Source: Methylobacter sp. KS41
GTDB lineage: Bacteria; Pseudomonadota; Gammaproteobacteria; Methylococcales; Methylomonadaceae
DNA length: 64,000 bases
Direction: 5' to 3'
Assembly: GCA_002862125.1 (NCBI GenBank)
Contig: PHSP01000003.1
Span: forward strand, 1,364,001 to 1,428,000
Below are positions 13,386 to 32,265 of this stretch, in pieces; the stretch's first letter is position 1, and every line of letters begins with the position of its first letter. The notes under the pieces are model-generated. The model ran no database searches and had not been told where the DNA came from. It saw nothing but the letters and a program-made list of their open reading frames with translations. A program made the translations under genes and the position numbers.

Positions 13386-16105
13386 CTATCAAGCCATTGC
13401 TCGAACAATCCAGTCGCATCGCGTTAGCGGCTTTTTTGCATGATCTGGGTAAATTTGCTGAACGGGCAAAAATCCCAGTTAATCAGGAAACCCTGGATGT
13501 CAACAAACAACTCTATTGCCCGCATCGTAAAAAATATACCGATGACAGAGGCTGGTTTAGTCATGTTCATGCCGCCTATACCGGTTTGGCGATGGACTTG
13601 ATTGAAGACTACATGCCCGAATTAAAAGGCGCGGAATTTGCCCCCTTCGGCTCATGGAAAACCAAAGATGCAGACGATTCCTTTATCAATGCTGCGGCCA
13701 AGCACCACAGACCCGAAAGTTTTTTGCAATGGATTATCGCCACTGCGGACCGGGTGGCGTCGGGTTTTGATCGTGAGGAATTTGAAGAATACAACGAGGC
13801 TGACGAAGGCACCTCCACCGGCAAAAACCATTACACTGCCCGTCAGTTGCCGCTTTTCGAGCAAATTCGCCTTGATAGTAAAGCCGAACAAAAATACGCT
13901 TACCGTTACCCGCTAAAACCTTTGTCACCCAACAGCATCTTTCCCGTCGAAGCCTGTAAATGCGAGGGTAACGACGATAAAGCCGCGCAAGACGAATACC
14001 TAAAACTCTGGCAAGGCTTTACCGGAGCGTTAAAACTGATGCCAAAGTCACACCGCAATAACTGGTCGTTATGGCTGGATCACTTTGAGACTTTGTGGGG
14101 TGTTTATACCCAGGCGATACCGTCAGCAACTGCGTTCAATATCCGGCCTGATGTGTCGCTATATGACCATTCCCGCGTTACCGCAGCTTTGGCAACGGCA
14201 TTATGGCGTTTTCACGATGAGCTCCGCAGAACTGATGACAAAGCCGCCAAAGAGCTAAAAGACCAGCAATCTAGCTGGGAAGAGAAGAAGTTCTTGCTGA
14301 TCCAGGGCGACTTTTTCGGCATTCAGGATTTCATCTTTGCCAGCGGCGGAGAAACCAACAAGCGCGCTGCCAAACTCCTGCGCGGCCGCTCATTTTATGT
14401 TTCACTGCTCAGCGAATGTGCGGCATTGAAAGTGCTGGATGCCCTGGATTTACCCTCAACTAGTCAAGTGATCAATGCGGCTGGTAAATTTATGATTGTT
14501 GCACCTAATACTTTAGCCACTATTGAAAAGCTGCAACAGGTACAGCAGGAGTTGGACAGCTGGTTTTTAACTCATAGCTGGGGGCAAGCAGGCGTCGGTT
14601 TGGCCTGGACAGAAGCTTCCTGCAATGATTTTCGCCGCCATTCTGGTAATCGCGACGAGGGCGTCTCTCCCACAGATGTAGGAGCGACGCCCTCGTCGCG
14701 ATTAAGCCCCTACCAAAAACTGATTAAAAAACTGTTTGAACAACTGGAAATAGTCAAGAATCAGCGTCTCAATTTATGCGGCAATGGAACCCCAATCGTT
14801 TTTGAGAAATTTCTCGATAACTTTGAAAATGGCGAGTGCAAAATCGACGGACGTTCTCCAGCCAAAATATTACTCGATAATGAGATTTGGATAAGTGAGC
14901 TTGCCAATGATCAGATAAATACGGGAACTTGGCTGGCAAAAGCAGAACGTGAACGGATCTTGATTACCCGTAAGTCACTGGGAATGGATACCGCGTTAAA
15001 AATATCTATTTTTGATTACCATATCAGTTTTGCTAAATCAGAAGAGGATCAAGGAAAATTTGGCGAACAAGCCAAAAATGGCAATTTACTGAGAGCTTGG
15101 GACTTTTCTTTGCCAAAATCCGCCGATCAAGCACTGTGGAACGGCTACGCCCGTCGCACCATTAACGCCTATGTGCCAATTGCCAATCAAGCGGATAAAC
15201 TGGAAGAGCAATGGGACAAATACATTGGAATAGAAGAGTCGCTGGAAGTGGGGGATGCTAAAACCCTAAACCATCTGGCTTGCGGTGATAGAGTCCAGAA
15301 TGAACTGGGCAACTGGCAAGGCATCAGCGCACTTTCAACCTTAAAGGGTGATGTTGATAATCTTGGCATGATCTTTCAATCCGGCTTGGGCGACGATGTC
15401 AGTTTTAGCAAAACCGCCGCGCTGTCCCGGCAAATTAATGCTTTTTTTACAGTCTATTTACCCTGGCTTTGCCAATCAGACGATCAGTATCGAAACACCT
15501 ACACCGTGTTTGCCGGAGGTGATGACTTCTTCCTGATCGGTCCGTGGCTGTCGCAAATCAAATTGGCCGGCAAAATGCGGCAAGCTTTTCAAGACTATGT
15601 AGCCGGGAACACGGAAGTACACTTTTCCGCAGGCATTAGCACGACCAAGCCCGGCTTGCCGATTGGTCAGTTGGGCGAGATGGCCGAAAAAGCGCTGGAA
15701 CAGGCCAAAGCGCATAATCCTGAAGATGAAAAACCAGCGCCTAAAAACGCGGTAAGCTGCTTCAACCAGCAAATGTTTTGGGATGAATTTAGCGCCTTGG
15801 AAATCCGCCGGAATCGTTTGCAGGTACTAAACCAGGAAATGAATTTAAGTACCGGCTATGTCTATGGTTTACTAACCTTGATCAACATGGCGGAAAAAGT
15901 CACTGAAAAACCTGAAAACGCCATCTGGCACAGTTATTTTGCTTATCGTACCGTACGAATGCTGGAACGTAACAAGCAACTCGACAAAGACCAGCGTAAA
16001 CGGAGGCAAGCAGAACTCGCCGAAGAAATTGCTAATGCCGGTATTATAAAGCACGGCGGTAATTACCGGGTGGCGCTGTTTTGTCATTTGTATCAGCAGC
16101 GTTAA
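13382..16105 (+). CDS. cas10: Cas10/Csm1, type III-A effector large subunit
   Basis: A 907-residue multidomain protein. The N-terminal HD nuclease motif is FLHDLGKFAERA, with His20-Asp21. The second palm domain has AGGDDFF with GGDD at residues 712-715, the catalytic centre that polymerises ATP into cyclic oligoadenylates on target RNA recognition. Both active sites look intact, so DNA cleavage and second-messenger synthesis are both expected. Residues 423-441 (around GNRDEGVSPTDVGATPSSRL) are encoded by a paired REP palindrome inserted in frame. The family is normally shorter in this region. The gene overlaps its upstream neighbour by four bases, and its stop codon overlaps another REP palindrome. 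Confidence 0.95.
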   Translation: MTIKPLLEQSSRIALAAFLHDLGKFAERAKIPVNQETLDVNKQLYCPHRKKYTDDRGWFSHVHAAYTGLAMDLIEDYMPELKGAEFAPFGSWKTKDADDSFINAAAKHHRPESFLQWIIATADRVASGFDREEFEEYNEADEGTSTGKNHYTARQLPLFEQIRLDSKAEQKYAYRYPLKPLSPNSIFPVEACKCEGNDDKAAQDEYLKLWQGFTGALKLMPKSHRNNWSLWLDHFETLWGVYTQAIPSATAFNIRPDVSLYDHSRVTAALATALWRFHDELRRTDDKAAKELKDQQSSWEEKKFLLIQGDFFGIQDFIFASGGETNKRAAKLLRGRSFYVSLLSECAALKVLDALDLPSTSQVINAAGKFMIVAPNTLATIEKLQQVQQELDSWFLTHSWGQAGVGLAWTEASCNDFRRHSGNRDEGVSPTDVGATPSSRLSPYQKLIKKLFEQLEIVKNQRLNLCGNGTPIVFEKFLDNFENGECKIDGRSPAKILLDNEIWISELANDQINTGTWLAKAERERILITRKSLGMDTALKISIFDYHISFAKSEEDQGKFGEQAKNGNLLRAWDFSLPKSADQALWNGYARRTINAYVPIANQADKLEEQWDKYIGIEESLEVGDAKTLNHLACGDRVQNELGNWQGISALSTLKGDVDNLGMIFQSGLGDDVSFSKTAALSRQINAFFTVYLPWLCQSDDQYRNTYTVFAGGDDFFLIGPWLSQIKLAGKMRQAFQDYVAGNTEVHFSAGISTTKPGLPIGQLGEMAEKALEQAKAHNPEDEKPAPKNAVSCFNQQMFWDEFSALEIRRNRLQVLNQEMNLSTGYVYGLLTLINMAEKVTEKPENAIWHSYFAYRTVRMLERNKQLDKDQRKRRQAELAEEIANAGIIKHGGNYRVALFCHLYQQR
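14649..14703. repeat. Inverted REP pair inside cas10
   Basis: Two head-to-head copies of a REP unit with the core GGAGCGACGCCCTCGTCGCG face each other and form a palindrome from AATCGCGACG to CGTCGCGATT. The pair is read in frame by cas10. The same unit recurs through the whole locus. Confidence 0.9.
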
Positions 16106-16127
16106 TCGCGACGCCTACGTCGCGATT
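16104..16127. repeat. REP palindrome at the cas10 stop codon
   Basis: A perfect palindrome AATCGCGACG-CCTA-CGTCGCGATT begins within the cas10 TAA. It lies in the 70-bp gap before csm2 and could act as an mRNA hairpin protecting or terminating the cas10 segment. Confidence 0.85.
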
Positions 16128-16175
16128 AAAACGCCATAAATTTTGGAAAGTAATTTTAAGACTAGAGGATGTTGT

Positions 16176-16658
16176 ATGAGTTTATTCAAGTTTCAAACCG
16201 CTCCACCGAACTGCGAAATGCTTGCTTTAGCTATTGATTTAAGCCAACCCAACATTAATTTATTTAATGAAACAGCCCAGTCTTTTGCCAAAGAAATGGC
16301 ATATCCAGAGTTACTAAAGTGGAATAACAAAAGTAGAGCTTGGGAAGTTAAGCACGATAAAAACGTAAATAAAATTACCCAACTCAGAAAATTTTATGAT
16401 GAAGTCTGTATGTGGGAGGCCAAAAACAAAAACTTCCAAGTGTTTTCTGAAAACTTGCCGTTTATCAAGATGCTTAATGCCAAAGTTGCTTACGCAAGAA
16501 GTCGAGAATATGTGGATGATAAGTTTGTGGCAATGATTGCTGGATGTTTATCTCAAATCAACGAAACCAATGAAGAGGGTATGAAAAAATTCAAAAACTT
16601 TAAAACTTTTTTTGAAGCTTTTTATGGTTTTTATCGTGCTGAAAGAATTAAAGACTAA
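16176..16658 (+). CDS. csm2: Csm2 small subunit
   Basis: The start at 16176 has an AGAGGA ribosome site. An upstream in-frame start at 16143 lacks one. The 160-residue protein is helical and charged. Its second half resembles Csm2 (KITQLRKFYDEVCMWEAKN, then LPFIKMLNAKVAYARSR, and a C-terminal FKTFFEAFYGFYRAERIKD). Csm2 forms the minor filament along the crRNA-target duplex. Small subunits are poorly conserved, and its position between cas10 and csm3 is the strongest support. The following gene begins 13 bp downstream. Confidence 0.85.
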   Translation: MSLFKFQTAPPNCEMLALAIDLSQPNINLFNETAQSFAKEMAYPELLKWNNKSRAWEVKHDKNVNKITQLRKFYDEVCMWEAKNKNFQVFSENLPFIKMLNAKVAYARSREYVDDKFVAMIAGCLSQINETNEEGMKKFKNFKTFFEAFYGFYRAERIKD

Positions 16659-16671
16659 TAAGGAATCCATT

Positions 16672-17391
16672 ATGCAACTTACCAAAATTCAAAAACTCAC
16701 AGGTCAAATTGAATTACTTAGCGGTCTACATATTGGCAGCGGTAACACCGAAATCCATATCGGCGGTACCGATAACCCTGTTATTAAAAACCCGATTACT
16801 CAAGAACCATATATTCCCGGCTCCAGCATTAAAGGAAAAATGCGTAGCTTGTTGGAGTGGCAATTGGGCGTAGTCGGTCAAACTGATGGTAAACCGTTGA
16901 ATTTTTCCCATATCAGCGAAAACAAAATTGAAGATTGTCACTTAACGCAAGCTATAAAAATCTTAAAATTGTTTGGCGGTGCGCCTGTAAGTAAACCTGA
17001 TGATAAATTAGTTGGAGAAATTGGCCCTAGCCGGCTGGCATTTTGGGACTGCTCACTTGATTCCAAATGGGTAGAAATGATGGGTAATCAACTACTCACC
17101 GAAGTCAAAATGGAAAATACCATCGACCGTATCAAAGGCACTGCCGAGCATCCGCGCAACACAGAGCGCGTTCCGGCAACGGCCAGGTTTGACTTTAATC
17201 TCACTATTCGTGTCCACGACCATGAAGACCTGACAGGCACCATTTTGGCCGGGCTTAAATTATTGGAACTTACCGGCCTGGGCGGATCCGGTTCGCGGGG
17301 CTATGGCAAAATCGCCTTCCGTGACTTGAAACTGGATGGTCATGATTTTCAGGCTAAACTTGATCAGCTCAATTTAGAAGAGGCAGTCTAA
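16672..17391 (+). CDS. csm3: Csm3 backbone RAMP and target-RNA nuclease
   Basis: The start at 16672 follows a TAAGGA ribosome site. The 239-residue RAMP contains SGLHIGSGNTEIHIGGTDNP, where Asp34 is the expected catalytic residue for target RNA cleavage at 6-nt intervals. The RAMP motif YIPGSSIKGKMRSLLE follows, then a thumb region with EHPRNTERVPATARFDF and the C-terminal glycine-rich loop LTGLGGSGSRGYGKIAF. Length and motifs are canonical for Csm3. The stop codon overlaps the start of the antitoxin gene (TAATG), so a toxin-antitoxin pair is translationally coupled to it. Confidence 0.95.
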   Translation: MQLTKIQKLTGQIELLSGLHIGSGNTEIHIGGTDNPVIKNPITQEPYIPGSSIKGKMRSLLEWQLGVVGQTDGKPLNFSHISENKIEDCHLTQAIKILKLFGGAPVSKPDDKLVGEIGPSRLAFWDCSLDSKWVEMMGNQLLTEVKMENTIDRIKGTAEHPRNTERVPATARFDFNLTIRVHDHEDLTGTILAGLKLLELTGLGGSGSRGYGKIAFRDLKLDGHDFQAKLDQLNLEEAV

Positions 17392-17636
17392 TGCAACCGA
17401 TACGTCAAATTTATTATGATGCGCCCAGTACGATCAGCATCCCCGAAGAGCTTCAACACCAAGCTCTAGAAGTGATTATTTGGCCGCTGGATAAATCAGA
17501 GGCCAAGCAAGAAATTGAAACCGATGCCAACGGCTGGCCGATTGGTTTTTTTGAAGAAACGGCGGGAGCTTGGGCAGGCGAACCTTTGATACGCGAACCT
17601 CAAGGTGAATACGAGCAACGTTTGGAGCTCGAATAA
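17391..17636 (+). CDS. VapB-like antitoxin embedded in the csm operon
   Basis: An 81-residue acidic protein. The N-terminus (QIYYDAPSTISIPEELQHQ) looks like a small DNA-binding or dimerisation strand-helix unit. The C-terminus (FFEETAGAWAGEPLIREPQG) is the toxin-neutralising type of tail seen in antitoxins paired with PIN toxins. It overlaps csm3 by one base and the PIN gene by one base. Its position between csm3 and csm4 is unusual. It probably neutralises the toxin encoded next and may autoregulate. Confidence 0.8.
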   Translation: MQPIRQIYYDAPSTISIPEELQHQALEVIIWPLDKSEAKQEIETDANGWPIGFFEETAGAWAGEPLIREPQGEYEQRLELE

Positions 17637-18034
17637 TGTGGCTGTTGGACACCAACGTATGGGTGCGCTATCTCAATCCTGGTTCATCCCCGGTCAAGGT
17701 ACAATTACACCAGCACTCACCGCACACACTCTGGCTTTGCGACATCGTTAAAGCCGAGCTGTATTACGGAGCCTATAAAAGTTCACGGCAAGAACAGAAT
17801 CTTGCGCTGCTGGAAAAACTGTTCGGTAAATTCCAATCGCTGGTTTTTGACAGCCACGCTGCTCAGCACTTTGGTCGAATCCGAGCCGACCTTCAACGCC
17901 AGGGCCAACCCATCGGTCCCTACGATTTGCAAATTGCCGCCATCGCCTTAGCCAACGATTTTACCCTGGTCACCCACAACACCCGCGAATTCAGTCGCAT
18001 CAACGGCTTATGCTTAGACGACTGGGAGGTTTAA
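17636..18034 (+). CDS. vapC: VapC-type PIN-domain ribonuclease toxin
   Basis: The 132-residue PIN domain starts MWLLDTNVWVRYL with the first catalytic Asp5. An acidic residue follows in DIVKAELYYGA, and PYDLQIAAIALANDFTLVTHN carries the later catalytic Asp and the conserved THN. The length is canonical for VapC. VapC toxins cleave tRNA or rRNA when freed from VapB. The gene is coupled to its antitoxin, and its stop abuts the start of csm4, so toxin, antitoxin and Csm subunits are made from one transcript. Confidence 0.92.
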   Translation: MWLLDTNVWVRYLNPGSSPVKVQLHQHSPHTLWLCDIVKAELYYGAYKSSRQEQNLALLEKLFGKFQSLVFDSHAAQHFGRIRADLQRQGQPIGPYDLQIAAIALANDFTLVTHNTREFSRINGLCLDDWEV

Positions 18035-19024
18035 ATGAATACGTATCGAATTACATTAAGCCTGCAATCAGCATTCGCTACGCCGTTAAAGGGCGACACG
18101 CTGTTTGGGCAACTGTGCTGGGCAATTCGTAATCGCTTGGGCGAAGAGCGCTTGAATCAATGCCTGGAAGGCTACGCCAACAGCCAACCGTTTGCCGTAG
18201 TTTCTGATGCTTTTCCCAACGGTTATTTACCGCTGCCGAAATTGCCGGGCTGCTTTTACCAACTCCCGGAAGGCGAAGATCGCAAGGCGGTAAAAAAGCT
18301 CACCTGGCTGCCGGAAGCCGAACTGCAAAAACCGCTTAAAGAATGGTTGTGCCATGCCGTCAATGCCAAAGCCATAGCCTCATCGATAACCAATAAATCC
18401 GTGGGAGCGACGCCCACGTCGCGATTAAACGCTGCCAGCCTTAGCGAAAAACACCCGCAACCACACAACACCATCAATCGCCAGACCAACACCACCGGCG
18501 AAGGCGGCTTTGCACCTTACAGCATTGAACAGGAATGGTTTATTCCCGGATTGCGCTGGACCTTATACCTTCTTCTTGATACAGCCCGGTTAAGTGCTGA
18601 AGACTGCCAGCAATGCCTTAAAGATATCGGTGCTTTTGGCTTTGGCAAAGACGCCAGCATTGGCATGGGCAAATTCCAAATTGAAGATTTTCAGGAACAG
18701 CCATTACCAGCGCAAAGCGATGCCAACGCCTGTTTAACCCTCGCGCCCTGTGCGCCGCAAGGTTTGGGGTTTGATAGCCGGACCAGCTTTTACCAACTGT
18801 TCACACGATTCGGGCGGCATGGCGACATTGCCGTCCATCAGGAAGGCAAACCGTTTAAAAATCCGGTGTTGCTGGCGCAAACTGCCGCTGTGTTTGGCGC
18901 CCATCCGCCCAAGTCCGGTTTTATTGGTCAGGGTATTGGCGGCAATGGCAAATTATCCAAAACCATGGTAGCCACTGTACATCAGGGCTATGCCCCGGTG
19001 ATTGGCGTGCACCTACAGAAATAG
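18035..19024 (+). CDS. csm4: Csm4 RAMP (5' tag-binding subunit)
   Basis: A GGGAGG ribosome site precedes the ATG. The 329-residue RAMP begins YRITLSLQSAFATPLKGDTLFGQLCWAIRN, the typical Csm4 opening. It ends with a Cys-free C-terminal domain containing FGFGKDASIGMGKF. Csm4 caps the complex, holds the crRNA 5' tag and contacts Cas10. Residues about 122-131 (NKSVGATPTSRLNA) are encoded by an in-frame REP unit followed by a low-complexity linker, between the two RAMP folds. That is a tolerated place for an insertion. Confidence 0.92.
   Translation: MNTYRITLSLQSAFATPLKGDTLFGQLCWAIRNRLGEERLNQCLEGYANSQPFAVVSDAFPNGYLPLPKLPGCFYQLPEGEDRKAVKKLTWLPEAELQKPLKEWLCHAVNAKAIASSITNKSVGATPTSRLNAASLSEKHPQPHNTINRQTNTTGEGGFAPYSIEQEWFIPGLRWTLYLLLDTARLSAEDCQQCLKDIGAFGFGKDASIGMGKFQIEDFQEQPLPAQSDANACLTLAPCAPQGLGFDSRTSFYQLFTRFGRHGDIAVHQEGKPFKNPVLLAQTAAVFGAHPPKSGFIGQGIGGNGKLSKTMVATVHQGYAPVIGVHLQK
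18401..18426. repeat. REP unit inside csm4
   Basis: A single copy, GTGGGAGCGACGCCCACGTC followed by GCGATT, is read in frame within csm4. It is one of at least nine REP sites in the CRISPR locus. Confidence 0.9.
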
Positions 19025-19025
19025 G

Positions 19026-19098
19026 GTGGGAGCGACGCCCACGTCGCGACTAACGGCAATCAGCCAATTCAAAGCGCGACGTAGGCGTCGCTCCCACA
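19026..19098. repeat. Inverted REP pair between csm4 and csm5
   Basis: A forward unit begins two bases after the csm4 stop (19026-19052). An inverted unit follows at 19074-19098. Together they fill most of the 88-bp gap before csm5. Confidence 0.9.
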
Positions 19099-19112
19099 AA
19101 AGCAGGCACAAG

Positions 19113-20768
19113 ATGAGCAATTTTTTACAAAACTACACCCTTAAATACACACCACTATCACCGCTGCACATTGGTGCCGATGAAAGCTATGAGCCGGGCA
19201 ACTATGTGATCGACGAAGAAGCCGGCGCTTTATACAGCTTTGACAGCGGCGCAGCACTGGCTGGTTTAAGCGATAGCGACAGGCAGCAGTTATTAGCGAT
19301 AGTCAATAGCAAGCCGGATGACATCATGCTGACCAAGGTGCAGGCGTTTTTTCATAAGCACCGGGAAAAATTACTGGCCTTCGCCATGCCGCCTGTCCCT
19401 ACTGCTAGTGGCGTAAAATCTCTGTATGAAAAACGCATTGGCAGGACAGCTCAGCACGAAGGCCAGGGTAGAAGAGTCATCAACAAGCTGGAAATCGAAC
19501 GCACCTCTTACAATCCAGTAGACGGCAAACCTTTTCTGCCGGGCAGCAGCATCAAAGGCGCAATTCGCACCGCTTTATTAGATGGGATCAACAATGAAAA
19601 ACCCTTAATTGATCGTAATGAACGCAATCAACAGCTCCAGCAGCGGCTGTTTGACGGTAAATTTCACACTGATCCCATGCGCCTGGTGTCTATTGCTGAT
19701 GCCGACTGGCAAGGTAGTGCGGATAAACCGGCTTGCCAGGTGCAATTTGCTGTTAATCGCAAACGTAAGCCGGTTATCAAAGACGGTAAATTACTGCAAT
19801 CGCAGGCCGAGGCCAGCAATCTGTATCAACTACTGGAATGTGTTTCGCCGTATCATTACCAAAGTTTTACTGGCAGTTTAACCTTGCTCAATACGCAATC
19901 GGTTGGGCAAAATAACTCCAAGCTGCCCAAACAACAGTTGCACTGGACTGCAAAAGACATTGCCAAAGCCTGCAACAATTTTTATGTGGGACTATTCTGG
20001 CAAGAATTTAATGCCATTAAAGAGCGCGGCTACCTGAAAACCGATTGGCTAAATCAAATGGAACAGTTGTTGGACAACGGATTATCCAAGCGTTTACATG
20101 ACGGCGACGCATTTCTGCTCCGCGTCGGCAGACACAGTGGTGCTGAGGCTTTAACGCTCAACGGTGTGCGTAAAATCAAGATTATGCAAGGCCGGGGAGA
20201 AAGACCAAAAGAGGAAAGCCAACCCAAAACCTGGTGGCTGGCCGCTGATGATATCAGCAACAAACAGGGTATGTTACCGTTTGGCTGGGTATTGGTAGAA
20301 ATCAATCCCAAAGAACCTGACAGTCCGCTTCAACAATGGCTGGAAAATGGTAACAGTGCTTTAACACTTTGGATGCAACAGCAGTTAGAAAAGCAAAATG
20401 TGCTAAAGCAAAAAGCGCAATTTCACCAGCAGCAAGAGCAGGAAAAAAAACAAGAAGAAGAGAAAAAGGCAGAAGAACTTCGCCTGCAGCAAGCCGCAGA
20501 ACAACAACGCCTGGCAAGTCTTAGCCCCATTGATCAGGAAATCGAAAGCTTCCTTAAACCCATTCAACAACAGGAACATGATACCCGTTTATTATCAGAA
20601 TTGGAAAAAGGCCGCTGGCAGGCTGCCGATGCCAGAGTCGTTGCCCAAAAAATCAAAACCTTAATGGAGCAGGCAGGTAAATGGATGCCTGATTTTGCCG
20701 GTGGCAACAAGCAAAAAGTGAAATTGAAAGAGCGCAGCCAAAAAGTGCTGTCTTATTTGAAAGACTGA
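19113..20768 (+). CDS. csm5: Csm5 RAMP with long C-terminal coiled-coil extension
   Basis: The start at 19113 gives MSNFLQNYTLKYTPLSPLHIGAD, the usual Csm5 opening. An open frame upstream only reads through REP sequence. The RAMP motif FLPGSSIKGAIRTAL sits near residue 155 and ends the first ferredoxin fold. The product is 551 residues, longer than typical Csm5. The last 140 or so residues add a Gln/Glu/Lys-rich coiled coil (about 425-465) and a helical tail (IDQEIESFLKPIQ and ARVVAQKIKTLMEQ). Csm5 normally caps the 3' end of the crRNA and recruits nucleases for trimming, so the extension may be a docking arm. That role is inference. Confidence 0.92.
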   Translation: MSNFLQNYTLKYTPLSPLHIGADESYEPGNYVIDEEAGALYSFDSGAALAGLSDSDRQQLLAIVNSKPDDIMLTKVQAFFHKHREKLLAFAMPPVPTASGVKSLYEKRIGRTAQHEGQGRRVINKLEIERTSYNPVDGKPFLPGSSIKGAIRTALLDGINNEKPLIDRNERNQQLQQRLFDGKFHTDPMRLVSIADADWQGSADKPACQVQFAVNRKRKPVIKDGKLLQSQAEASNLYQLLECVSPYHYQSFTGSLTLLNTQSVGQNNSKLPKQQLHWTAKDIAKACNNFYVGLFWQEFNAIKERGYLKTDWLNQMEQLLDNGLSKRLHDGDAFLLRVGRHSGAEALTLNGVRKIKIMQGRGERPKEESQPKTWWLAADDISNKQGMLPFGWVLVEINPKEPDSPLQQWLENGNSALTLWMQQQLEKQNVLKQKAQFHQQQEQEKKQEEEKKAEELRLQQAAEQQRLASLSPIDQEIESFLKPIQQQEHDTRLLSELEKGRWQAADARVVAQKIKTLMEQAGKWMPDFAGGNKQKVKLKERSQKVLSYLKD

Positions 20769-20770
20769 TC

Positions 20771-21061
20771 ATGACCACCTACTTCATCACCCGTCATCCC
20801 GGCGCCATCGCCTGGGCTAAACAGCAAGGCATTAGCGTTGACCGGCAACTCGCCCATCTGGATATTAACGACATTCAGCCGGGCGATACCGTAATTGGCA
20901 GCTTGCCGGTTAATCTGGCTGCCGAAGTTTGCCAGCGCGGCGCGGCTTACATTCACATGGGGCTAACCGTGCCGGAACGCTGGCGCGGCAAGGAATTAAG
21001 CCTGGAGCAGATGATTGAATGCGGCGCACGTCTGGAAAACTATGTGGTCAGCAAAAGCTGA
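20771..21061 (+). CDS. csx16: Csx16 family, putative cyclic-oligoadenylate ring nuclease
   Basis: The 96-residue protein begins TTYFITRHPGAIAWAKQQGI and carries GDTVIGSLPVNLAAEVCQRG and HMGLTVPERWRGKELSLEQM, which match the Csx16 (VVA1548) family found only in type III loci. Recent work assigns ring-nuclease activity on cyclic tetra-adenylate to some Csx16 proteins, so it may act as an off-switch for the CARF effectors. The gene starts two bases after the csm5 stop, so it is coupled to the effector operon. Confidence 0.88.
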   Translation: MTTYFITRHPGAIAWAKQQGISVDRQLAHLDINDIQPGDTVIGSLPVNLAAEVCQRGAAYIHMGLTVPERWRGKELSLEQMIECGARLENYVVSKS

Positions 21062-21087
21062 ATATGGCTTGTTTATTAACATGGAAG

Positions 21088-21176
21088 TCGCGACGAGGGC
21101 GTCGCGCCCACGGATGGTAATGACGCTTGATGTGGGAGTAATTCAAAATGTAGGAGCGACGCCCACGTCGCGACTA
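21088..21176. repeat. REP pair at the 5' end of the RAYT gene
   Basis: An inverted unit at 21088-21111 and a forward unit at 21150-21176 flank about 40 bp. They lie where the RAYT gene begins, the usual arrangement for a REP-mobilising transposase and its substrate. Confidence 0.9.
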
Positions 21177-21626
21177 AAAAACCACAATAAATCCAAGCCC
21201 CACAGTAAAAACCTGCGCAAAGGCCGTTATTCAGCGCCGAATCAGATTTATCTGATTACTGCGGTAACCCAAAATCGCCTGCCTGTGTTTGCTGACTTTT
21301 ACAAAGCGAGGCAACTGATAAAGGTGCTAAAAACCGAACAGCATGCACACACCCTTGCGTTCGTGGTCATGCCGGATCATTTGCATTGGTTGATGGCGCT
21401 TGGCGAGCAGCGTCAACTGAGCAAGGTAGTGCAAGGAATTAAATCCATCTCATCTCGAAAAATCGGTCACCCGCTTTGGCAAGCAGGCTATTACGATCAT
21501 GCTTTGCGGGCTGAAGAGGATATTCAGGCAACAGCCCGCTATATCGTTGCCAATCCACTGCGTGCCGGCCTGGTTGAGCGGATTGGCGATTACCCTCATT
21601 GGGATGCGATGTGGTTGTGCGATTGA
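21120..21626 (+). CDS. REP-associated tyrosine transposase (RAYT)
   Basis: A Y1/HUH single-strand transposase of the IS200/IS605-like type. Core features are PNQIYLITAVTQNRLPVF, the HUH motif in VVMPDHLHWLMAL, and the catalytic-Tyr helix ARYIVANPLRAGL near the C-terminus. RAYTs bind and cut REP hairpins and are domesticated in many gammaproteobacteria. This copy is bracketed by REP pairs on both sides and lies between csx16 and cad1. The start is uncertain, because any start upstream of about 21150 translates part of a REP. I chose the ATG at 21120. The enzyme is the obvious source of the REP units spread through the locus. Confidence 0.85.
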   Translation: MTLDVGVIQNVGATPTSRLKNHNKSKPHSKNLRKGRYSAPNQIYLITAVTQNRLPVFADFYKARQLIKVLKTEQHAHTLAFVVMPDHLHWLMALGEQRQLSKVVQGIKSISSRKIGHPLWQAGYYDHALRAEEDIQATARYIVANPLRAGLVERIGDYPHWDAMWLCD

Positions 21627-21634
21627 ATTGCAGA

Positions 21635-21700
21635 TATCGCGACGAGGGCGTCGCTCCTACAACCGTTGTTCTGCGTGGGAGCGACGCTCTCGTCGCGATT
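21635..21700. repeat. REP pair after the RAYT gene
   Basis: An inverted unit (21635-21660) and a forward unit (21675-21700) lie in the gap between the RAYT stop and cad1, completing the flanking pairs around the transposase gene. Confidence 0.9.
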
Positions 21701-21718
21701 AAAAACTAGAAACTATAA

Positions 21719-23911
21719 ATGAACCCTACAATGACTCAAACCAGCCAAACCCAAAATATCCTGCTCTGTACCCTTGGCACCAGTTGGGCGGTGATTCCTG
21801 AAGCCTATGCGTTTCTGGCGCCTGATAAACTACCGATGTATCAAAATCACCCCGAGCAGGCACAACTGCTGGCATTAAAAGCCGAATATCAATTACAGCC
21901 GCCCGATGAAATTTGGGTCTGCACCACCCAAGGCGAGCAAACCCAAAAAAGCCTGGAGCAATTGCAACAATGGATTGTGCTCTGCCCGCAAGCCCCGGTA
22001 TTAAGAATCTGGCAAGCCGGGCAAACAGATCAACTCGCTAGTCAGGAAGAATGCGGCAAAATCCGTGAATTGATCGTCAGAGCCTGTCTCAAAGCCCATC
22101 AGCATGCCAACGGCGACGCCCTCGTCGAGGAAACAAATACCCCCGGTAGGAGCGACGCCCTCGTCGCGAAAAAAACCGGCCAGGTTGTCCTGTCTTTGGC
22201 CGGTGGCCGCAAAACCATGAGCGCAGACATGCAATGGGCCGGCAGCTTGTTTGGCTGTCAGGCCTTGCTGCATGTCATCAGCGATGACAGCCGGTTACGG
22301 GATTCAATTTTATTCAAGCCTCAGCCAGCCATGTTAGCCCAAGCTTTAACCAAAGACTTGGCGCAACTGATCATGCCGCTAATTGCCGGCCAAACCAGCC
22401 GCAGCGATTTGCTGGACATCAGCGTCGATGATGCCGGCCCGATAAAAACTGAAGCTTATCCCCTGGATTTGCCGCCGGCCACGCAAATTGCGCTATTTAA
22501 CGATACCGGTCATAGTCTTAGTAAAGAGTTAAGCAAGCGCGAAAAAGCCAGCAGCCGCCTGTTTGGTAATTTTTTACTGGAAATCAGCCGTAGCGAGTGC
22601 CACGAAAACTGGCGCAGCCTTTACCGGCTGCCGCCACGCAGCATAGACCGACTGCGCAACACGATGTTGACCGGTATGGATCGCGACTGGCTGATCAGCC
22701 TGCCTAAAGCAGATCTTCACCGCCACCTCGGCGGTTGCCTGGATTTGGACGCCCAACGCCGGGTGGCGCAAGCCATCTGGCAAAGCCTCACTCCGGATGA
22801 ACAAAGCCAGGCCCTCCAGCACAGTCAACCTTTGCTGGACACGCCGGACTGGCCGTGGCAATGGCCTGAACAGCTTAATATACAAGGCGCGCGCAGCCAC
22901 AACAGCGCCGCCTTGCTGTTGCATGCCAGTGATGCGCAACTACGGCATAATCTTTGGCAGGCGACCGAGCCCCGCATTGCCCTGAAAACCGGCCATCACG
23001 CCGGTTTTTCCGCCTATGAACGCCCAGGCGAACTGACAGGGTCAGCATTGTTAAGCCATCCCGCCAGCATCCAACCTTACGCCCAAGCCCTTGTGCAGCA
23101 AGCCCTCGATGAAGGGCTGGCTTATGTGGAACTGCGCGGCAGTCCGCAAAAATACGGTGACGGTCTGACATTTCTAAAAAATTTTTATTACGCGCTCACA
23201 GAAACACTGACAAGCTTGCCAACCGGCAACCCGCCACAGTTCCGTTTTATCATCATTGCCGACCGCCGTGCCAGGGAAGCAGATTTAAAGAAGACGATTT
23301 GCCTGGCAGTCGATGCTAAAAAACTGCTTCCCGGCTTTGTCGTTGGTCTGGACATGGCCGGAGATGAGCAGCAAACCAAACCGGAGGACATTGCCCACTT
23401 GTTTATCCCAGCCTTTGAGTATTGCCTGCCGGTCACCATCCATGCCGGCGAAGGCGAACAAGCCGAATCGATCTGGCAAGCCGCCTACCATCTGCATGCC
23501 GACCGCATCGGCCATGGCCTGACCCTTAACGGCAATGCCAACCTGGCGCAACGCTTCCGCGACCGCAACATCTGTCTGGAACTGTGCCCCACATCCAATC
23601 GTGAAGTTGTCGGCTATAATGATCCGCGCTTCCCGGACAGCAGAAAATATCCGCAATACCCGCTGCTCGAATTGTGGAAAAAAGGCTTGCCGCTCACAAT
23701 CTGCACCGACAACCCGGGAATTAGCCGCACCACGCTGGCTGACGAATACCTGACGGCCGCGGCGATGATCGATAACCAGCTTAGCCAGTGGGATGTGCTG
23801 GCCATGATTAAACAGGGCTTTGTACATAGTTTTCTATCGGGAAGCAGTAAGGAAGCCCTGTTAAAACAGGTCGATGCACAACTCTATCAACTCATTTCCG
23901 GGCAACCCTAA
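21719..23911 (+). CDS. cad1: Cad1: CARF domain fused to adenosine deaminase
   Basis: The 730-residue product has an N-terminal CARF domain (ILLCTLGTSWAVIPEAYAFL near residue 14 and VVLSLAGGRKTMSADMQWAG near 160). From about residue 325 it has a complete adenosine-deaminase barrel: the zinc HxH in LPKADLHRHLGG (His334, His336), HAGE (His575), RIGHG, CPTSNREV, and the catalytic-site Asp in CTDNPGIS (Asp664). CARF-deaminase proteins called Cad1 have recently been described as deaminating ATP to ITP on binding cyclic oligoadenylate, stalling growth and phage replication. All metal ligands appear intact. A REP-derived stretch (around residues 132-150) is inserted in the CARF half. The gene lies between the RAYT and card1 genes. 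Confidence 0.93.
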   Translation: MNPTMTQTSQTQNILLCTLGTSWAVIPEAYAFLAPDKLPMYQNHPEQAQLLALKAEYQLQPPDEIWVCTTQGEQTQKSLEQLQQWIVLCPQAPVLRIWQAGQTDQLASQEECGKIRELIVRACLKAHQHANGDALVEETNTPGRSDALVAKKTGQVVLSLAGGRKTMSADMQWAGSLFGCQALLHVISDDSRLRDSILFKPQPAMLAQALTKDLAQLIMPLIAGQTSRSDLLDISVDDAGPIKTEAYPLDLPPATQIALFNDTGHSLSKELSKREKASSRLFGNFLLEISRSECHENWRSLYRLPPRSIDRLRNTMLTGMDRDWLISLPKADLHRHLGGCLDLDAQRRVAQAIWQSLTPDEQSQALQHSQPLLDTPDWPWQWPEQLNIQGARSHNSAALLLHASDAQLRHNLWQATEPRIALKTGHHAGFSAYERPGELTGSALLSHPASIQPYAQALVQQALDEGLAYVELRGSPQKYGDGLTFLKNFYYALTETLTSLPTGNPPQFRFIIIADRRAREADLKKTICLAVDAKKLLPGFVVGLDMAGDEQQTKPEDIAHLFIPAFEYCLPVTIHAGEGEQAESIWQAAYHLHADRIGHGLTLNGNANLAQRFRDRNICLELCPTSNREVVGYNDPRFPDSRKYPQYPLLELWKKGLPLTICTDNPGISRTTLADEYLTAAAMIDNQLSQWDVLAMIKQGFVHSFLSGSSKEALLKQVDAQLYQLISGQP
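22113..22169. repeat. Direct REP pair inside cad1
   Basis: A diverged unit at 22113-22131 and a better-preserved one at 22146-22169 have the same orientation and are translated in frame (GDALVEETNTPGRSDALVAK). They sit just before the second CARF motif. Confidence 0.85.
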
Positions 23912-23926
23912 TCTGGGAGCGATATT

Positions 23927-23990
23927 GTAGGAGCGACGCCCTCGTCGCGAATCAATCATTTAAAATCGCGACGAGGGCGTCGCTCCTACA
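23927..23990. repeat. Inverted REP pair between cad1 and card1
   Basis: A forward unit (23927-23951) and an inverted unit (23964-23990) are separated by 12 bases. They occupy the gap ahead of card1 and could form a long hairpin in the operon mRNA. Confidence 0.9.
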
Positions 23991-24039
23991 TTAGGATTTT
24001 TCCCACAAAAACCCATATCCTAACCACAGGCAACCAGAC

Positions 24040-25167
24040 ATGAACATTAGCACCCACCTTATTCTGGTATCTGCCCAGCCGATACCCAATCTCACGCCCA
24101 TCCTGGACGACAGCCTGCGCCCGCAAAAAGTCGTCATGCTGGTCAGTCCCGATATGCAGGAACGCAGCAACGCCCTGGAAAACATTTTGAAGCCGCGCGG
24201 CATTGGCGTGGAGCGCTGCCTGATTGACGATCCCTGGAATGCAGCCCGCATCAGCGATCAGGTTCTGGATTTGCTCACTCAATACCCGGATGGCGGCATC
24301 GCCCTTAATGCCACCGGCGGCACCAAACTGATGAGCATTGCCGCCTATGAAGCCTTCCGCAGCGAAAAATTGCCAATCTTTTACGTCCACCCCGAACATG
24401 ACCGGCTGATCTGGCTATCGCCTAAACTCCCGGACGTTGACTTGTCCGATCGACTGAAACTTAAAGATTACCTGATGGCTTATGGCGCCAGCAGTGTTGA
24501 AATATTGGATCCCACCGGAGTTAGCGCGCCCATCCGGCAACTGACGCAGCAGCTTTTGGCAGACATCAACCGCTATGCCAGTGAACTGGGCGCGCTCAAT
24601 TATCTGGCCGGACAAGCCGATAATCCGCGACTGAGCTGTCAAATTGAATCCGGCCCGCAATCCAGGCCCTATTTATGGGAATTACTGGACTTGTTTGAAG
24701 CCGCCGGGCTTTGCAAAATCGACGGCCACAGCCTGCGCTTTACCGATGAAAACGCCCGTTTTACCGCCAACGGCGGCTGGCTGGAATTGCACACCTATGC
24801 GCTCTGTCTCAACCTGAAAAAAGCCTTGTCCATACAGGATATCGCCAGCAACATTACCATCAAGCGCCAATCAGGACGAGCGGTAGTCAAAAACGAAATC
24901 GACATTGGCCTGATCAAAGCCAACCGCCTGCATCTGATCGAATGCAAAACCGGGTATCTTGAAAAAGGGGCCGATGTGCTGTATAAACTGGACAGCCTTC
25001 GCGATTTGATGGGAGGCTTGCAAGGGCGCGCCATGCTGGTTAGTTTTAACCCCCTCGATAAAGCCAGCCGGGCTCGTGCCCAAGAGCTGAATATCCAGCT
25101 TTGCTGTCGAAGCGAACTGCGAAATTTGCAGCATCATTTACAAACCTGGCTAATCAATGAGAGATAA
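24040..25167 (+). CDS. card1: Card1/Can2-type CARF nuclease
   Basis: A 375-residue protein. The N-terminal CARF domain (HLILVSAQPIPNLTPILDD, and IALNATGGTKLMSIAAYEAF near residue 90) is followed by a linker or winged-helix region and a PD-(D/E)xK nuclease domain of the DUF1887 kind. The nuclease signature is NEIDIGLIKANRLHLIECKT, with candidate catalytic Glu286, Asp288, Glu301 and Lys303. Characterised Card1/Can2 enzymes are activated by cyclic tetra-adenylate and cut single-stranded DNA and RNA, or nick DNA, to arrest growth. The nuclease motif looks intact. It is the last protein gene before the array. Confidence 0.9.
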   Translation: MNISTHLILVSAQPIPNLTPILDDSLRPQKVVMLVSPDMQERSNALENILKPRGIGVERCLIDDPWNAARISDQVLDLLTQYPDGGIALNATGGTKLMSIAAYEAFRSEKLPIFYVHPEHDRLIWLSPKLPDVDLSDRLKLKDYLMAYGASSVEILDPTGVSAPIRQLTQQLLADINRYASELGALNYLAGQADNPRLSCQIESGPQSRPYLWELLDLFEAAGLCKIDGHSLRFTDENARFTANGGWLELHTYALCLNLKKALSIQDIASNITIKRQSGRAVVKNEIDIGLIKANRLHLIECKTGYLEKGADVLYKLDSLRDLMGGLQGRAMLVSFNPLDKASRARAQELNIQLCCRSELRNLQHHLQTWLINER

Positions 25168-25240
25168 CTTTTTAAAAATGCAAAACCTTGTCAACCACCC
25201 CGCTAACCTGCTGAAAATAAAAGGAGAAAAATGCCAAGCT
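25168..25240 (+). promoter_or_regulatory. Probable CRISPR leader
   Basis: This short gap separates card1 from the first repeat. The opposite end of the array has the degenerate repeat, so this is the leader side. It is A-rich near the array. It also contains AGGAG five bases before an ATG at 25231 whose frame runs into the first repeat and stops after ten codons. The leader may extend back into card1. Confidence 0.55.
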
Positions 25241-29734: not shown

Positions 29735-29781
29735 CTCAAGCCATCCTCTATCAACCCATCTAATCAAGAGAAAACCGATTT

Positions 29782-29841
29782 GTGGGAGCGATGCCTGCAT
29801 CGTGAATTAAAGGCCTTAATCGCGACGTGGGCGTCGTTCCA
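29782..29841. repeat. Diverged REP pair between array and cas2
   Basis: A mutated forward unit (29782-29808) and a better-preserved inverted unit (29818-29841) lie in the 170-bp gap between the degenerate repeat and cas2. They show more substitutions than the REP units in the effector operon. Confidence 0.75.
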
Positions 29842-29903
29842 ACCATTTTTTGGCAAGCTTGTCAGTTCTGCTAAAAAGATTTCTTCTGTGTATTCTCTCT
29901 GCC

Positions 29904-30188
29904 ATGACAAATCGGCAACTTTATCTGGCAGCTTACGATATTTCCTGCAACCGGCGTTTACGCAAGGCGCTGTATGTGTTGCGGGGTTTTGCGTCGGGCG
30001 GGCAAAAATCGGTGTTTGAGTGTTTTTTAACACCCGCCGAAAAAGCGCAATTGCTGGAAGAGATAGGCCTGGTCATTGACCCTGTCGAAGATCGTTTTAT
30101 TTTGCTGAGACTGGCGGGCGCCAAACATATCCGCACGTTAGGCAAAGCGGTACTTCCGCAGGATGGTTCCTTTTTTTATGTGGGGTGA
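29904..30188 (+). CDS. cas2: Cas2 (first copy)
   Basis: The start at 29904 gives a 94-residue Cas2 with the family's LYLAAYDISCNRRLRKALYVL opening, in which the Asp after AAY is conserved. The second half reads KSVFECFLTPAEKAQLLEEI and ends SFFYVG. Cas2 dimers bridge two Cas1 dimers during spacer integration. An upstream extension to 29850 would add a hydrophobic tail unlike the family. The following cas1 starts three bases after the stop. Confidence 0.93.
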   Translation: MTNRQLYLAAYDISCNRRLRKALYVLRGFASGGQKSVFECFLTPAEKAQLLEEIGLVIDPVEDRFILLRLAGAKHIRTLGKAVLPQDGSFFYVG

Positions 30189-30191
30189 TGA

Positions 30192-31160
30192 ATGAGCAGT
30201 TTGTATTTGGACCGGAAAAATCTGGGGATAAAGCTGGATGGACAGGCGCTGGCTTTGTACGAAGATGGCGTCAAGAAAGGCACGGCGCCTCTGCATTTGC
30301 TGGAGCGGGTGGTATTGCGCGGCAATGTGCAGTTGGAAAGCCGGGTGCTGGGAGCATTGTCGGAACGCAATATTGGTTTGCTGGTGTTATCAGGCCGAAA
30401 TACCGAGGCGACGGCGATGCTGGCTGCGCGTTCACATGGAGATTCGTTGCGGAGGCTGGGGCAGTATCAAACCAGTCTGGATGATGGTTTGCGCACGCCG
30501 TTGGCGCGCTGGCTAGTGCTGGTTAAGGTGCGCGCCCAGCAGTGTTTGCTGCGCGATGCGCTGGCGGTGCGGGCTGATTTGCGCCACCCTTTAACTTCCG
30601 CCTTGCAGACTTTGAACGGGATTTCCGGACAGTTGCTTGAAGATAAGGTTGATTTACCGCTGGCTAGTTTGCGCGGTTATGAGGGGGCGGCGGCAGCGGC
30701 GTATTTTACGGCCTATGTGCATTTATTTGCCGATTCACTGAACTTCTCAGGGCGTAAAAAAAGGCCGCCGCCCGATCCGGTTAATGCTTGTTTGTCGCTG
30801 GGTTACACTTTGCTGCATTATGATGCGGTGCGTGCCTGCCATACTGTGGGCTTGGATTCTATGCTGGGTTTTTATCATGATGTAAGCTTTGGCCGCGAGT
30901 CGCTGGCCTGTGATGTGATGGAGCCTTTGCGGCCTCTGATGGATCGCTGGGTGTGGCAGATGTTCCGGGAGCGGCAGCTAAGAATCGAGCATTTCTGTGA
31001 TGATAACGGTCGTTGTCAGATGAATAAAGCTGGCCGGCAGTGTTTTTACGGTTTTTACGAATCCCGTGCCGGTTCCGCGAGGCGTTTGCTGAGGCGCTAC
31101 GGCTATGCGCTGGCCAAGCGCTACCAAACGGTTAGTCAGGCGGATTGTGATATCAAGTAG
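30192..31160 (+). CDS. cas1: Cas1 integrase, catalytically complete
   Basis: A 322-residue Cas1. The N-terminal beta domain is SSLYLDRKNLGIKLDGQALA. The helical catalytic domain has the metal ligands Glu164 in RGYEGAAAAAYF, His229 in MLGFYHDVSFGR, and Asp241/Glu244 in CDVMEPLRP. All are present, so this copy should catalyse spacer integration. Length is canonical. It follows cas2 by three bases and precedes the second cas1-like gene by about 45 bp. Confidence 0.96.
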   Translation: MSSLYLDRKNLGIKLDGQALALYEDGVKKGTAPLHLLERVVLRGNVQLESRVLGALSERNIGLLVLSGRNTEATAMLAARSHGDSLRRLGQYQTSLDDGLRTPLARWLVLVKVRAQQCLLRDALAVRADLRHPLTSALQTLNGISGQLLEDKVDLPLASLRGYEGAAAAAYFTAYVHLFADSLNFSGRKKRPPPDPVNACLSLGYTLLHYDAVRACHTVGLDSMLGFYHDVSFGRESLACDVMEPLRPLMDRWVWQMFRERQLRIEHFCDDNGRCQMNKAGRQCFYGFYESRAGSARRLLRRYGYALAKRYQTVSQADCDIK

Positions 31161-31204
31161 GTACGACGCCATACAGGATTTATTCCGGCAGGAAAGGAGA
31201 GTTG

Positions 31205-31948
31205 ATGCGGCCTTTGTATATTGATGGTTGTACCGGTTGCCGGGTGGTATTGGACGAACCGGCATTGCGCGTGACGGTGCCGGACAAGGCTGATCAGTTG
31301 TTTCCGTTGTCGCGGATTTCTCGCGTGGTGTGCAAGGGTGTGGTGGAGTGGTCGATGTCTGCTTTGCTGGCTTGCGCTGATGCGGGTATTAATCTGCTGA
31401 TTCTGGAGAAAAACGGGGAAGTACGCGCCCGTTGGCTTGGAAGAGGCGGCGAAAGACAATCACTGACGCAACGTCTAGTGGATTTGTTATCGCGAGCCGA
31501 TGGACCTGAGCGATATGAAAACTGGCAGTTGTCCATTGAAAAACTGGCTGCGCGCAGCTTTGCCCGGCGCATGGGGCTTGAGGAGTGGAGGGAGGCGCCG
31601 GTTGCTGATTTGCGTCAGCGGCTGTCTTTAAGCTTATCAAACGAGGGGCGGCACCGTGCCAATCTGCTGCAAAGTTTATTATACAGTGAATTATTGAACT
31701 GGCTCCCGGAATGCGGTTTTTGCAGTGATGATGAGGCGTTGCTAACCAGTGATCTGGATTTGGCGTCGGATTTAAGCAAATTTTTGTTGTGGGATTTTTA
31801 TCCGGCCTTGCTGGCAGCCGGTGAGCCGGATACCTCCTCGGCGCTGTCCGCAATGGCGTTGCTTTATCAGCAACGCGCAGACCGGGTTTATTTGTTGTTC
31901 AGGAGTACGATCAACAAGTTGCATCAGTTTTTACTGGCCATTAGCTAA
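31205..31948 (+). CDS. Cas1-like protein lacking the catalytic triad
   Basis: The start at 31205 has AGGAGAG upstream. The 247 residues align with Cas1 through the N-terminal beta domain (RPLYIDGCTGCRVVLDEPAL, then INLLILEKNGEVRARWLG) and into a shortened helical domain. The Glu of the YEG motif and the His of the GFxH motif have no counterpart. The segment DLDLASDLSKFLLWDFYPAL occupies the place of the AYDLMEPFRP region, but the positions of acidic ligands are not convincingly kept. It is therefore probably an inactive paralogue, perhaps structural or regulatory in an adaptation complex. Its stop overlaps the start of a second cas2, so it has its own dedicated Cas2 partner. Confidence 0.8.
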   Translation: MRPLYIDGCTGCRVVLDEPALRVTVPDKADQLFPLSRISRVVCKGVVEWSMSALLACADAGINLLILEKNGEVRARWLGRGGERQSLTQRLVDLLSRADGPERYENWQLSIEKLAARSFARRMGLEEWREAPVADLRQRLSLSLSNEGRHRANLLQSLLYSELLNWLPECGFCSDDEALLTSDLDLASDLSKFLLWDFYPALLAAGEPDTSSALSAMALLYQQRADRVYLLFRSTINKLHQFLLAIS

Positions 31949-32265
31949 TGGCTGACAGTCAAAACGGTTTATATATGATTGCGTATGACATCACCAATCC
32001 TAGGCGTTTGTCCAGGGTGCATCGAGTCCTGAAAAAACAGGGCTTGCCGGTACAGTATTCGGTGTTTATGGTGGTTATGAAACGCAAGGCTTTGTTACGA
32101 TTGCTGGAGCGTATCAGTCAACTGATTCAGCCAGCCGAGGATGACATTCGTTGTTATCGTTTGCCTGAACGGACCGATATTAAAACCTTGGGTAAGCAGT
32201 TTTTTCCAGCGGATGTGATGTTGTTTACGGGCGGTGTTAATAGGTTGTTGAGTGGAACAAATTGA
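31948..32265 (+). CDS. cas2: Cas2 (second copy)
   Basis: A 105-residue Cas2 with the classical YMIAYDITNPRRLSRVHRVL opening, in which Asp and Asn follow MIAYDITN, and the central VQYSVFMVVMKRKALLRLLE. It is closer to the common Cas2 consensus than the first copy, from which it differs strongly. It overlaps the Cas1-like gene by one base (TAATG), implying coupled synthesis. It ends the cas cluster. Confidence 0.93.
   Translation: MADSQNGLYMIAYDITNPRRLSRVHRVLKKQGLPVQYSVFMVVMKRKALLRLLERISQLIQPAEDDIRCYRLPERTDIKTLGKQFFPADVMLFTGGVNRLLSGTN

What the first reader, a model, noticed from the sequence alone, without database searches (positions are those of the whole stretch)
31205..32265. Second adaptation pair: a Cas1-like protein without catalytic residues coupled to its own Cas2
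cas2-cas1 is followed by a second cas1-like/cas2 pair overlapping by one base. The second protein keeps the Cas1 N-terminal beta domain but has a shortened helical domain. The Glu and His ligands present in the first Cas1 (Glu164, His229, Glu244) have no visible counterpart. A dead Cas1 with a dedicated Cas2 could form a heteromeric integrase, a spacer-capture or trimming factor, or a regulator. I am not aware of a described function for such a pair.
Basis: partly seen in the sequence, partly recalled or inferred. Interest (0 to 1): 0.78.

Follow-up and report, generated by a model that had tools for sequence, protein, structure and literature searches.

The report
Dead Cas1 in four-gene CRISPR module
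Next to its normal spacer-inserting genes, this bacterium carries a second, apparently catalytically dead copy of the CRISPR integrase Cas1 with its own Cas2, and the same four-gene set is conserved in many relatives, which suggests that the memory-making machine of these CRISPR systems may be built from two different Cas1 subunits.

Summary
Window 31205-31948 (here Cas1L) is a full-length but shortened Cas1 homologue (AlphaFold pLDDT 87.6; Foldseek top hits are Cas1 and a casposase). The catalytic Glu helix is deleted, His aligns with Leu179 and the second Glu with Lys192. Of 73 Cas1L sequences none has His and two have Glu at those columns; the neighbouring Cas1A keeps all three ligands in 69 of 70 (the other has Asp for the last Glu). 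It is not decay: the order cas2A-cas1A-cas1L-cas2B on one strand is complete in 65 of 78 places (76 genomes), and 9 of the other 13 are cut by contig ends; cas1L and cas2B overlap at 58 of 73 junctions; dN/dS is about 0.13; Cas1L forms one clade. The beta (dimer) domain is as conserved as Cas1A's, while the helical domain varies freely and has lost its positive charge (+0.6 against +12.4). My best reading is a dedicated non-catalytic subunit of a heteromeric integrase (0.45). Assembly is unproven; a Cas1L-Cas2B read-through fold gave no confident interface (pTM 0.67). The family is already catalogued without a function (PADLOC PDLC01185, 'Cas1, diverged variant, second in the loci').

The parts
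29904..30188 (+). cas2A (first Cas2)
   Evidence: TIGR01573 26 bits (cut-off 24.5), PF09827 E 1.7e-11
30192..31160 (+). cas1A, Cas1 with Glu164, His229, Glu244
   Evidence: PF01867 E 1.8e-66; ligands kept in 69 of 70 orthologous sequences, Asp for Glu244 in the other (69 distinct sequences)
31205..31948 (+). cas1L: Cas1-like protein without catalytic ligands, shortened helical domain
   Evidence: PF01867 E 8e-7 over 11-87; PDLC01185 E 7e-10; hhalign to Cas1A over the full length; AF2 model and Foldseek
31948..32265 (+). cas2B (second Cas2), start overlaps the cas1L stop by one base
   Evidence: PF09827 E 4.6e-17; 38% identical to cas2A over 89 residues
25241..29667 (+). CRISPR array, 63 repeats of 37 nt, 62 different spacers of 31-36 nt
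11293..25167 (+). type III-A effector and signalling genes: cas6, CARF protein of the NE0113/Csm6 model, csm1/cas10, csm2-csm5, CARF-adenosine deaminase, Card1-like CARF-PDDEXK
   Evidence: ORFs; csm1, the NE0113-model protein and the two CARF effectors by profile; cas6 only at E 0.011, below its cut-off; csm2-csm5 named by me from order and look (recall), not scanned

Best explanation
Cas1L is a dead Cas1 paralogue kept as a dedicated non-catalytic subunit of a heteromeric spacer integrase. Canonical integrases carry four identical Cas1 around a Cas2 dimer, and structural papers distinguish catalytic from non-catalytic Cas1 subunits. Here the two seats would be filled by different genes: Cas1A does the strand transfer; Cas1L, joined to it through the conserved N-terminal beta (dimer) domain, fills the non-catalytic seat; Cas2A and Cas2B form the centre. 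Shown here: Cas1 fold (predicted), loss of catalytic ligands, conservation of the four-gene set, overlapping genes, purifying selection, conserved beta domain with a freely varying, nearly uncharged helical domain. Inferred: co-assembly, the seat, and any effect on spacer choice or orientation.
For: Order 2A-1A-1L-2B on one strand complete in 65 of 78 places. Where not cut by a contig end, cas1L stands without a whole cas1A in only 3 of 78 places (L122, L169, L124); L122 and L169 share one deletion, and cas1L is internally deleted in L169, which would fit dependence on Cas1A. Overlap of cas1A-cas1L at 47 of 73 and of cas1L-cas2B at 58 of 73 junctions suggests matched expression. Mean pairwise identity over 67 loci: beta domain 45% in Cas1L against 47% in Cas1A; helical domain 26% against 51%. 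dN/dS of Cas1L 0.133 (N 0.074, C 0.154) in close pairs. Divergence of Cas1L follows that of Cas1A most closely (partial correlation 0.57, the highest of six gene pairs). Mean spacer length is as in relatives with a single pair. Published structures name catalytic Cas1a and non-catalytic Cas1b (PMC8102632, passages) and repeat contact by a non-catalytic Cas1 (PMC6895254, one passage). Four Cas1 around two Cas2 is the known hexamer (PMC9048733, passages).
Against: No complex was shown: the only multi-protein test (Cas1L and Cas2B read through as one chain) gave pTM 0.67 with a low-confidence linker and Cas2B tail, so no confident interface. A Cas1A-Cas1L fold was not run because the aligner placed Cas1L rows on Cas1A. 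The beta domain would be equally conserved in a Cas1L homodimer. The partial correlation may only reflect that these are the two longest proteins. A related lineage does with one Cas1 and one Cas2 (13 of 13 stretches checked; csm genes seen beside it in L215, L219 and L222), so the extra pair is not needed for type III adaptation as such. cas1L is still intact in L122 and L124, where cas1A is gone or broken. Known non-catalytic Cas1 subunits touch DNA, whereas Cas1L has lost most positive charge.
Confidence: 0.45

Rival explanations
1. Cas1L with Cas2B forms a separate dead integrase-like complex that tunes adaptation, for example by competing with Cas1A-Cas2A for partners or for the leader, keeping acquisition low until needed.
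For: Own Cas2 with a one-base overlap at 39 of 73 junctions; loss of catalytic ligands and of charge; the window system has several CARF effectors, whose self-activation would be costly (inference).
Against: The read-through fold shows no confident Cas1L-Cas2B contact; among 78 places cas1L without a whole cas1A, contig ends aside, occurs only in L122, L169 and L124; a competitor would be expected to keep DNA-binding charge.
Confidence: 0.2
2. Cas1L-Cas2B is a prespacer capture or end-protection factor that hands DNA (or single-stranded or RNA-derived DNA) to Cas1A-Cas2A.
For: I noticed no Cas4 or reverse transcriptase among the ORFs near the adaptation cluster (neither was searched for), so a processing factor could be wanted; a run of mostly basic positions K113, R117, R121, R122 (58, 54, 59 and 59 of 73).
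Against: Helical domain mean net charge +0.6 against +12.4 in Cas1A, window protein net -3; no acid or His cluster at 70% or more in the helical domain that could trim; mean spacer lengths unchanged.
Confidence: 0.15
3. Cas1L has moved to a role outside spacer integration, such as a scaffold linking adaptation to the type III effector or to signalling.
For: Near signalling genes in a part of the stretches (card1-like in 28, CARF-ADA in 16 of 79); a histidine kinase gene lies between cas1A and cas1L in 3 of 79 (L123, L131, L132).
Against: Cas1L was found only inside or at the edge of the adaptation cluster in the 79 stretches; many stretches are too short to judge the effector link.
Confidence: 0.12
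4. Cas1L is a decaying duplicate without function.
For: The helical domain diverges fast; one remnant (L015) and one internally deleted copy (L169) exist.
Against: dN/dS about 0.13, open frames in relatives down to 17% identity, four-gene order kept outside the class too.
Confidence: 0.03

Closest known systems
PADLOC model PDLC01185, 'Cas1, diverged variant, second in the loci'
   Same: 30 of 30 Cas1L members tested match (best E 1e-75; window E 7e-10, residues 10-110); the label describes this position
   Different: The entry I saw is a profile with a label; it gives no function and does not mention the second Cas2 or lost catalytic residues. The model also picks up other Cas1: 5 of the 25 genomes matched (one of these, L040, is a Cas1A cut by a contig end)
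Canonical Cas1 of Cas1-Cas2 integrases (PF01867, TIGR00287)
   Same: Fold, two-domain layout, beta domain sequence
   Different: Catalytic Glu-His-Glu lost, 75 residues shorter than Cas1A of the window, low positive charge
Non-catalytic Cas1 subunits in Cas6-RT-Cas1-Cas2 (PMC8102632) and in a type II-A integrase discussed in PMC6895254 (passages read)
   Same: Proposed role: a Cas1 seat that does not perform strand transfer
   Different: There the same polypeptide fills both seats; here a separate dead gene would
Casposase (6opm)
   Same: Best Foldseek E-value, 1.5e-9
   Different: A casposase is an active integrase of a mobile element (recall; abstract of PMC6977970); Cas1L lacks the ligands and lies in a cas cluster

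Membership tests
Cas1 (PF01867) | Cas1 fold: N-terminal beta domain and helical domain | tested here: met
   AF2 pLDDT 87.6, Foldseek top hits Cas1 and a casposase; Pfam above gathering score, N-terminal part only
Cas1 (PF01867) | Catalytic Glu-His-Glu (or Asp) ligands | tested here: not met
   Glu164 in a gap, His to Leu179, Glu to Lys192; 0 of 73 His, 2 of 73 Glu and 1 of 73 Asp at the aligned columns
Cas1 (PF01867) | Spacer integration activity | not testable with these tools
   needs an assay
PDLC01185 diverged second Cas1 | Match to the profile and second position in the locus | tested here: met
   30 of 30 members of A2; order in 65 of 78 places
Cas2 (PF09827, TIGR01573), for cas2B | Profile match and conserved Tyr-Asp near the N-terminus | tested here: met
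   Y13 and D14 in 73 of 73
Cas1-Cas2 integrase complex | Cas1L assembles with Cas1A and a Cas2 | tested here: inconclusive
   Cas1L-Cas2B read-through fold pTM 0.67; Cas1A-Cas1L not folded
Type III-A CRISPR-Cas (host locus) | csm1/cas10 with csm genes next to the module | tested here: met
   window: TIGR02578 701.5 bits against cut-off 170; csm1-5 similarity in 15 of 79 stretches, window included; many stretches are too short or too diverged to tell

The most novel reading that the evidence does not exclude
The first CRISPR integrase built from two different Cas1 subunits: an obligate heteromer of catalytic Cas1A and pseudo-enzyme Cas1L on a Cas2A-Cas2B core, whose built-in asymmetry fixes which end of a prespacer is inserted first, and so spacer orientation, in type III-A systems.
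Probability: 0.3. Interest if true: 0.88.

Novelty: new variant of a known kind. Interest (0 to 1): 0.7.

Why it matters
Tested type III systems adapt without a PAM, and how they recognise their substrates is listed as open (PMC9048733, passages). A conserved four-gene adaptation module with a built-in dead Cas1 offers a natural way to separate the catalytic and structural seats of the integrase by gene deletion, which is hard where one Cas1 does both. It also puts a testable function on a protein family for which I found only a profile label.

Tried and rejected
Rejected: decay. Rejected: an intact triad hidden by sequence divergence. Rejected: a changed mean spacer length; arrays in 78 dual-module stretches (43 arrays, 1230 spacers, mean 34.2) and in 13 single-pair stretches (10 arrays, 163 spacers, mean 33.8) agree. 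My script dropped arrays with a spacer SD over 8 and misjudged a few left in (repeat bounds in L128 and L216; one in L161 is probably not an array). Within arrays the spread is often wider in dual loci (SD 0.5 to 2.6) than in single-pair ones (0.5 to 0.9, but 2.2 in L221); I draw nothing from it. Led nowhere: phage matches to the array (none); plasmid copies of Cas1L (none); Cas1L relatives in the PDB by sequence (none at E 1). A first dN/dS run (medians 0.34 to 0.93) mixed in distant, saturated pairs and was replaced (66 pairs with Cas1A identity 80 to 98.5%; 25 to 54 usable per gene or part). The exact origin of Cas1L is unresolved: sister to Cas1A at 100 in one tree, outside Cas1A plus the single-pair lineage at 92 in another; its stem branch is long (about 2 changes per column). 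Literature: searches listed no paper that I recognised as describing a dead second Cas1; I judged by listings and abstracts and opened five papers by passages. The 'diverged Cas1' and 'inactivated Cas1' hits in PMC12669027 and PMC3150331, in the passages shown, concerned Cas10 or Cas11. The library holds open-licence papers only.

Full report
What is there. Window 29904-32265 holds cas2A, cas1A, cas1L and cas2B in one direction, downstream of a 63-repeat CRISPR array and a type III-A effector cluster with CARF effectors. The coordinates of the finding fit cas1L (31205-31948) and cas2B (31948-32265), whose stop and start share one base.

Is Cas1L a Cas1? By sequence only its N-terminal part, about residues 10-110 at most in the best profile hits, matches Cas1 profiles. 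A profile of its relatives aligns with a Cas1A profile over the whole length (98.4%, E 8e-15). The AlphaFold model from 30 sequences has mean pLDDT 87.6 and pTM 0.81. Foldseek finds 152 PDB chains at E 0.001 or better; the 50 rows shown are titled as Cas1, Cas-DNA or Cas1-Cas2-containing complexes or a casposase, except 2yzs, an uncharacterised Aquifex protein.

Is it dead? Cas1A keeps Glu164 and His229 in 70 of 70 and Glu244 in 69 of 70, with one Asp (69 distinct sequences, since L014 and L150 are the same contig). In Cas1L the Glu164 helix is deleted and the other two positions are Leu179 and Lys192. Of 73 Cas1L none has His at column 179; two have Glu and one Asp at column 192. By a looser test, six of 73 (L043, L166, L168, L170, L171, L172) have some His within 4 residues of column 179 together with some Glu within 4 of column 192. 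A local misalignment cannot be excluded for these, and I did not test the first Glu in them one by one. At the 70% level the conserved charged positions of Cas1L are mostly basic (9 R or K, plus D17, D99, D197 and R2), with no His.

Is it kept? Fifteen related loci came from named MAGs, nearly all Methylococcales or Methylococcaceae (one, L015, a remnant). In drawn surveys, Cas1L proper is in 20 of 369 genomes of the class (25 matched the PADLOC model; the other five gave ordinary Cas1 or, L040, a Cas1A cut by a contig end). It is in 7 of 398 of the phylum, the window's own genome included (48 matched at E 0.001; the other 41 matched at E 2.6e-12 or weaker in their N-terminal part, and in the 23 of these whose stretches I looked at no ORF matched Cas1L best). 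It is in 55 of 311 of the order (E 1e-15, 57 places). I fetched stretches around nearly all of these (not G868; G200 only as a short stretch): 83 stretches, 79 with Cas1L, one of which (L014) is the same contig as L150, so 78 places in 76 genomes. The order 2A-1A-1L-2B on one strand is complete in 65 of 78. Nine of the rest are cut by contig ends. L134 has 1A-2A-1L-2B. L122 and L169 lack cas1A, and L124 has a broken cas1A without cas2A. L122 and L169 share the same new end of cas2A, so this looks like one inherited deletion; cas1L is intact in L122 and internally deleted in L169.

Selection. In 66 close pairs the median dN/dS (Nei-Gojobori, saturated pairs dropped) is 0.077 for Cas1A (37 usable), 0.133 for Cas1L (29), 0.101 for Cas2A (54) and 0.113 for Cas2B (38); within Cas1L, 0.074 for the beta domain (48) and 0.154 for the rest (25). 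The pairs share rows and are not independent. Gene overlaps: cas1L-cas2B 58 of 73 junctions, 39 of them by one base; cas1A-cas1L 47 of 73, one of these from the duplicate contig.

Anatomy as a hint of function. Across 67 loci the beta domain is about equally conserved in both Cas1 proteins (45% and 47% mean pairwise identity); the helical domain is 26% in Cas1L and 51% in Cas1A. Mean net charge is +15.3 for Cas1A and +2.3 for Cas1L, the difference lying in the helical part (+12.4 and +0.6). From general knowledge of Cas1 structures (recall), the beta domain carries the dimer contact and the helical domain the active site and most DNA contacts. This pattern fits a protein kept for pairing rather than for cutting or gripping DNA.

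Origin. Cas1L is one clade (SH-aLRT 100). Cas2B is one clade (97, 92). Cas2A is one clade at 99 but not, where the truncated L040 locus was counted as ordinary. A related set of 13 Cas1 in the order, joined with Cas1A at 92, stands in canonical cas1-cas2 pairs without Cas1L in 13 of 13 stretches. Cas1A was not a clade of its own there, so that set may have arisen from within it by loss of Cas1L; this is not resolved. Trees were short searches, and the Cas2 ones had only 95 columns.

Complex test. The cas1L and cas2B genes of L134, read through as one chain with 94 aligned rows, gave pLDDT 86.8 but pTM 0.67, with the linker and the Cas2B tail at low confidence. I read this as no evidence for a 1:1 contact, and not as evidence against a larger complex.

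Mechanism. I favour a heteromeric integrase in which Cas1L is the non-catalytic seat (0.45). Published passages show that ordinary complexes already contain catalytic and non-catalytic Cas1 subunits (PMC8102632, PMC6895254). The rest is inference. A regulator (0.2) and a capture factor (0.15) remain open; decay (0.03) is nearly excluded.

Novelty. The family has a profile and a label but, in the searches made (open-licence papers only), I found no described function, and I saw no report of the four-gene conservation, the ligand loss or the charge loss. I call it a new variant of a known kind.

Noticed in passing
L132 1356-2147; L131 1946-2734; L123 3954-4706: A gene for a cytosolic histidine kinase (HisKA and HATPase_c by Pfam for L132; the other two by tblastn, 99% and 52% identity) lies inside the adaptation operon between cas1A and cas1L in 3 of 79 stretches.
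   Followed up: partly
window 14650-29843, 14 places: REP-like palindromic elements (14 matches with up to 3 mismatches, 0 expected in shuffles), several inside cas reading frames, where they read VGATPTSRL; a REP-type transposase-like ORF lies at 21015-21626 (named from recall, not scanned).
   Followed up: partly
window 12276-25167: One III-A locus carries three CARF proteins: an NE0113/Csm6-model protein, a CARF-adenosine deaminase and a Card1-like CARF-PDDEXK.
   Followed up: no
window array, spacers 3 and 4, and 19 and 25 counted from 25241: Two pairs of spacers overlap in sequence (18 nt or more), both pairs on the same strand; with two cases this is only a hint of strand bias.
   Followed up: no
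L122, L169: A shared deletion removes cas1A and the end of cas2A in two related genomes; Cas1L is intact in one and internally deleted in the other.
   Followed up: yes
G000:C1:1970297-1970914: The window's genome has one more Cas1-like match elsewhere, in two stretches over the Pfam cut-off, ordinary as far as seen.
   Followed up: no
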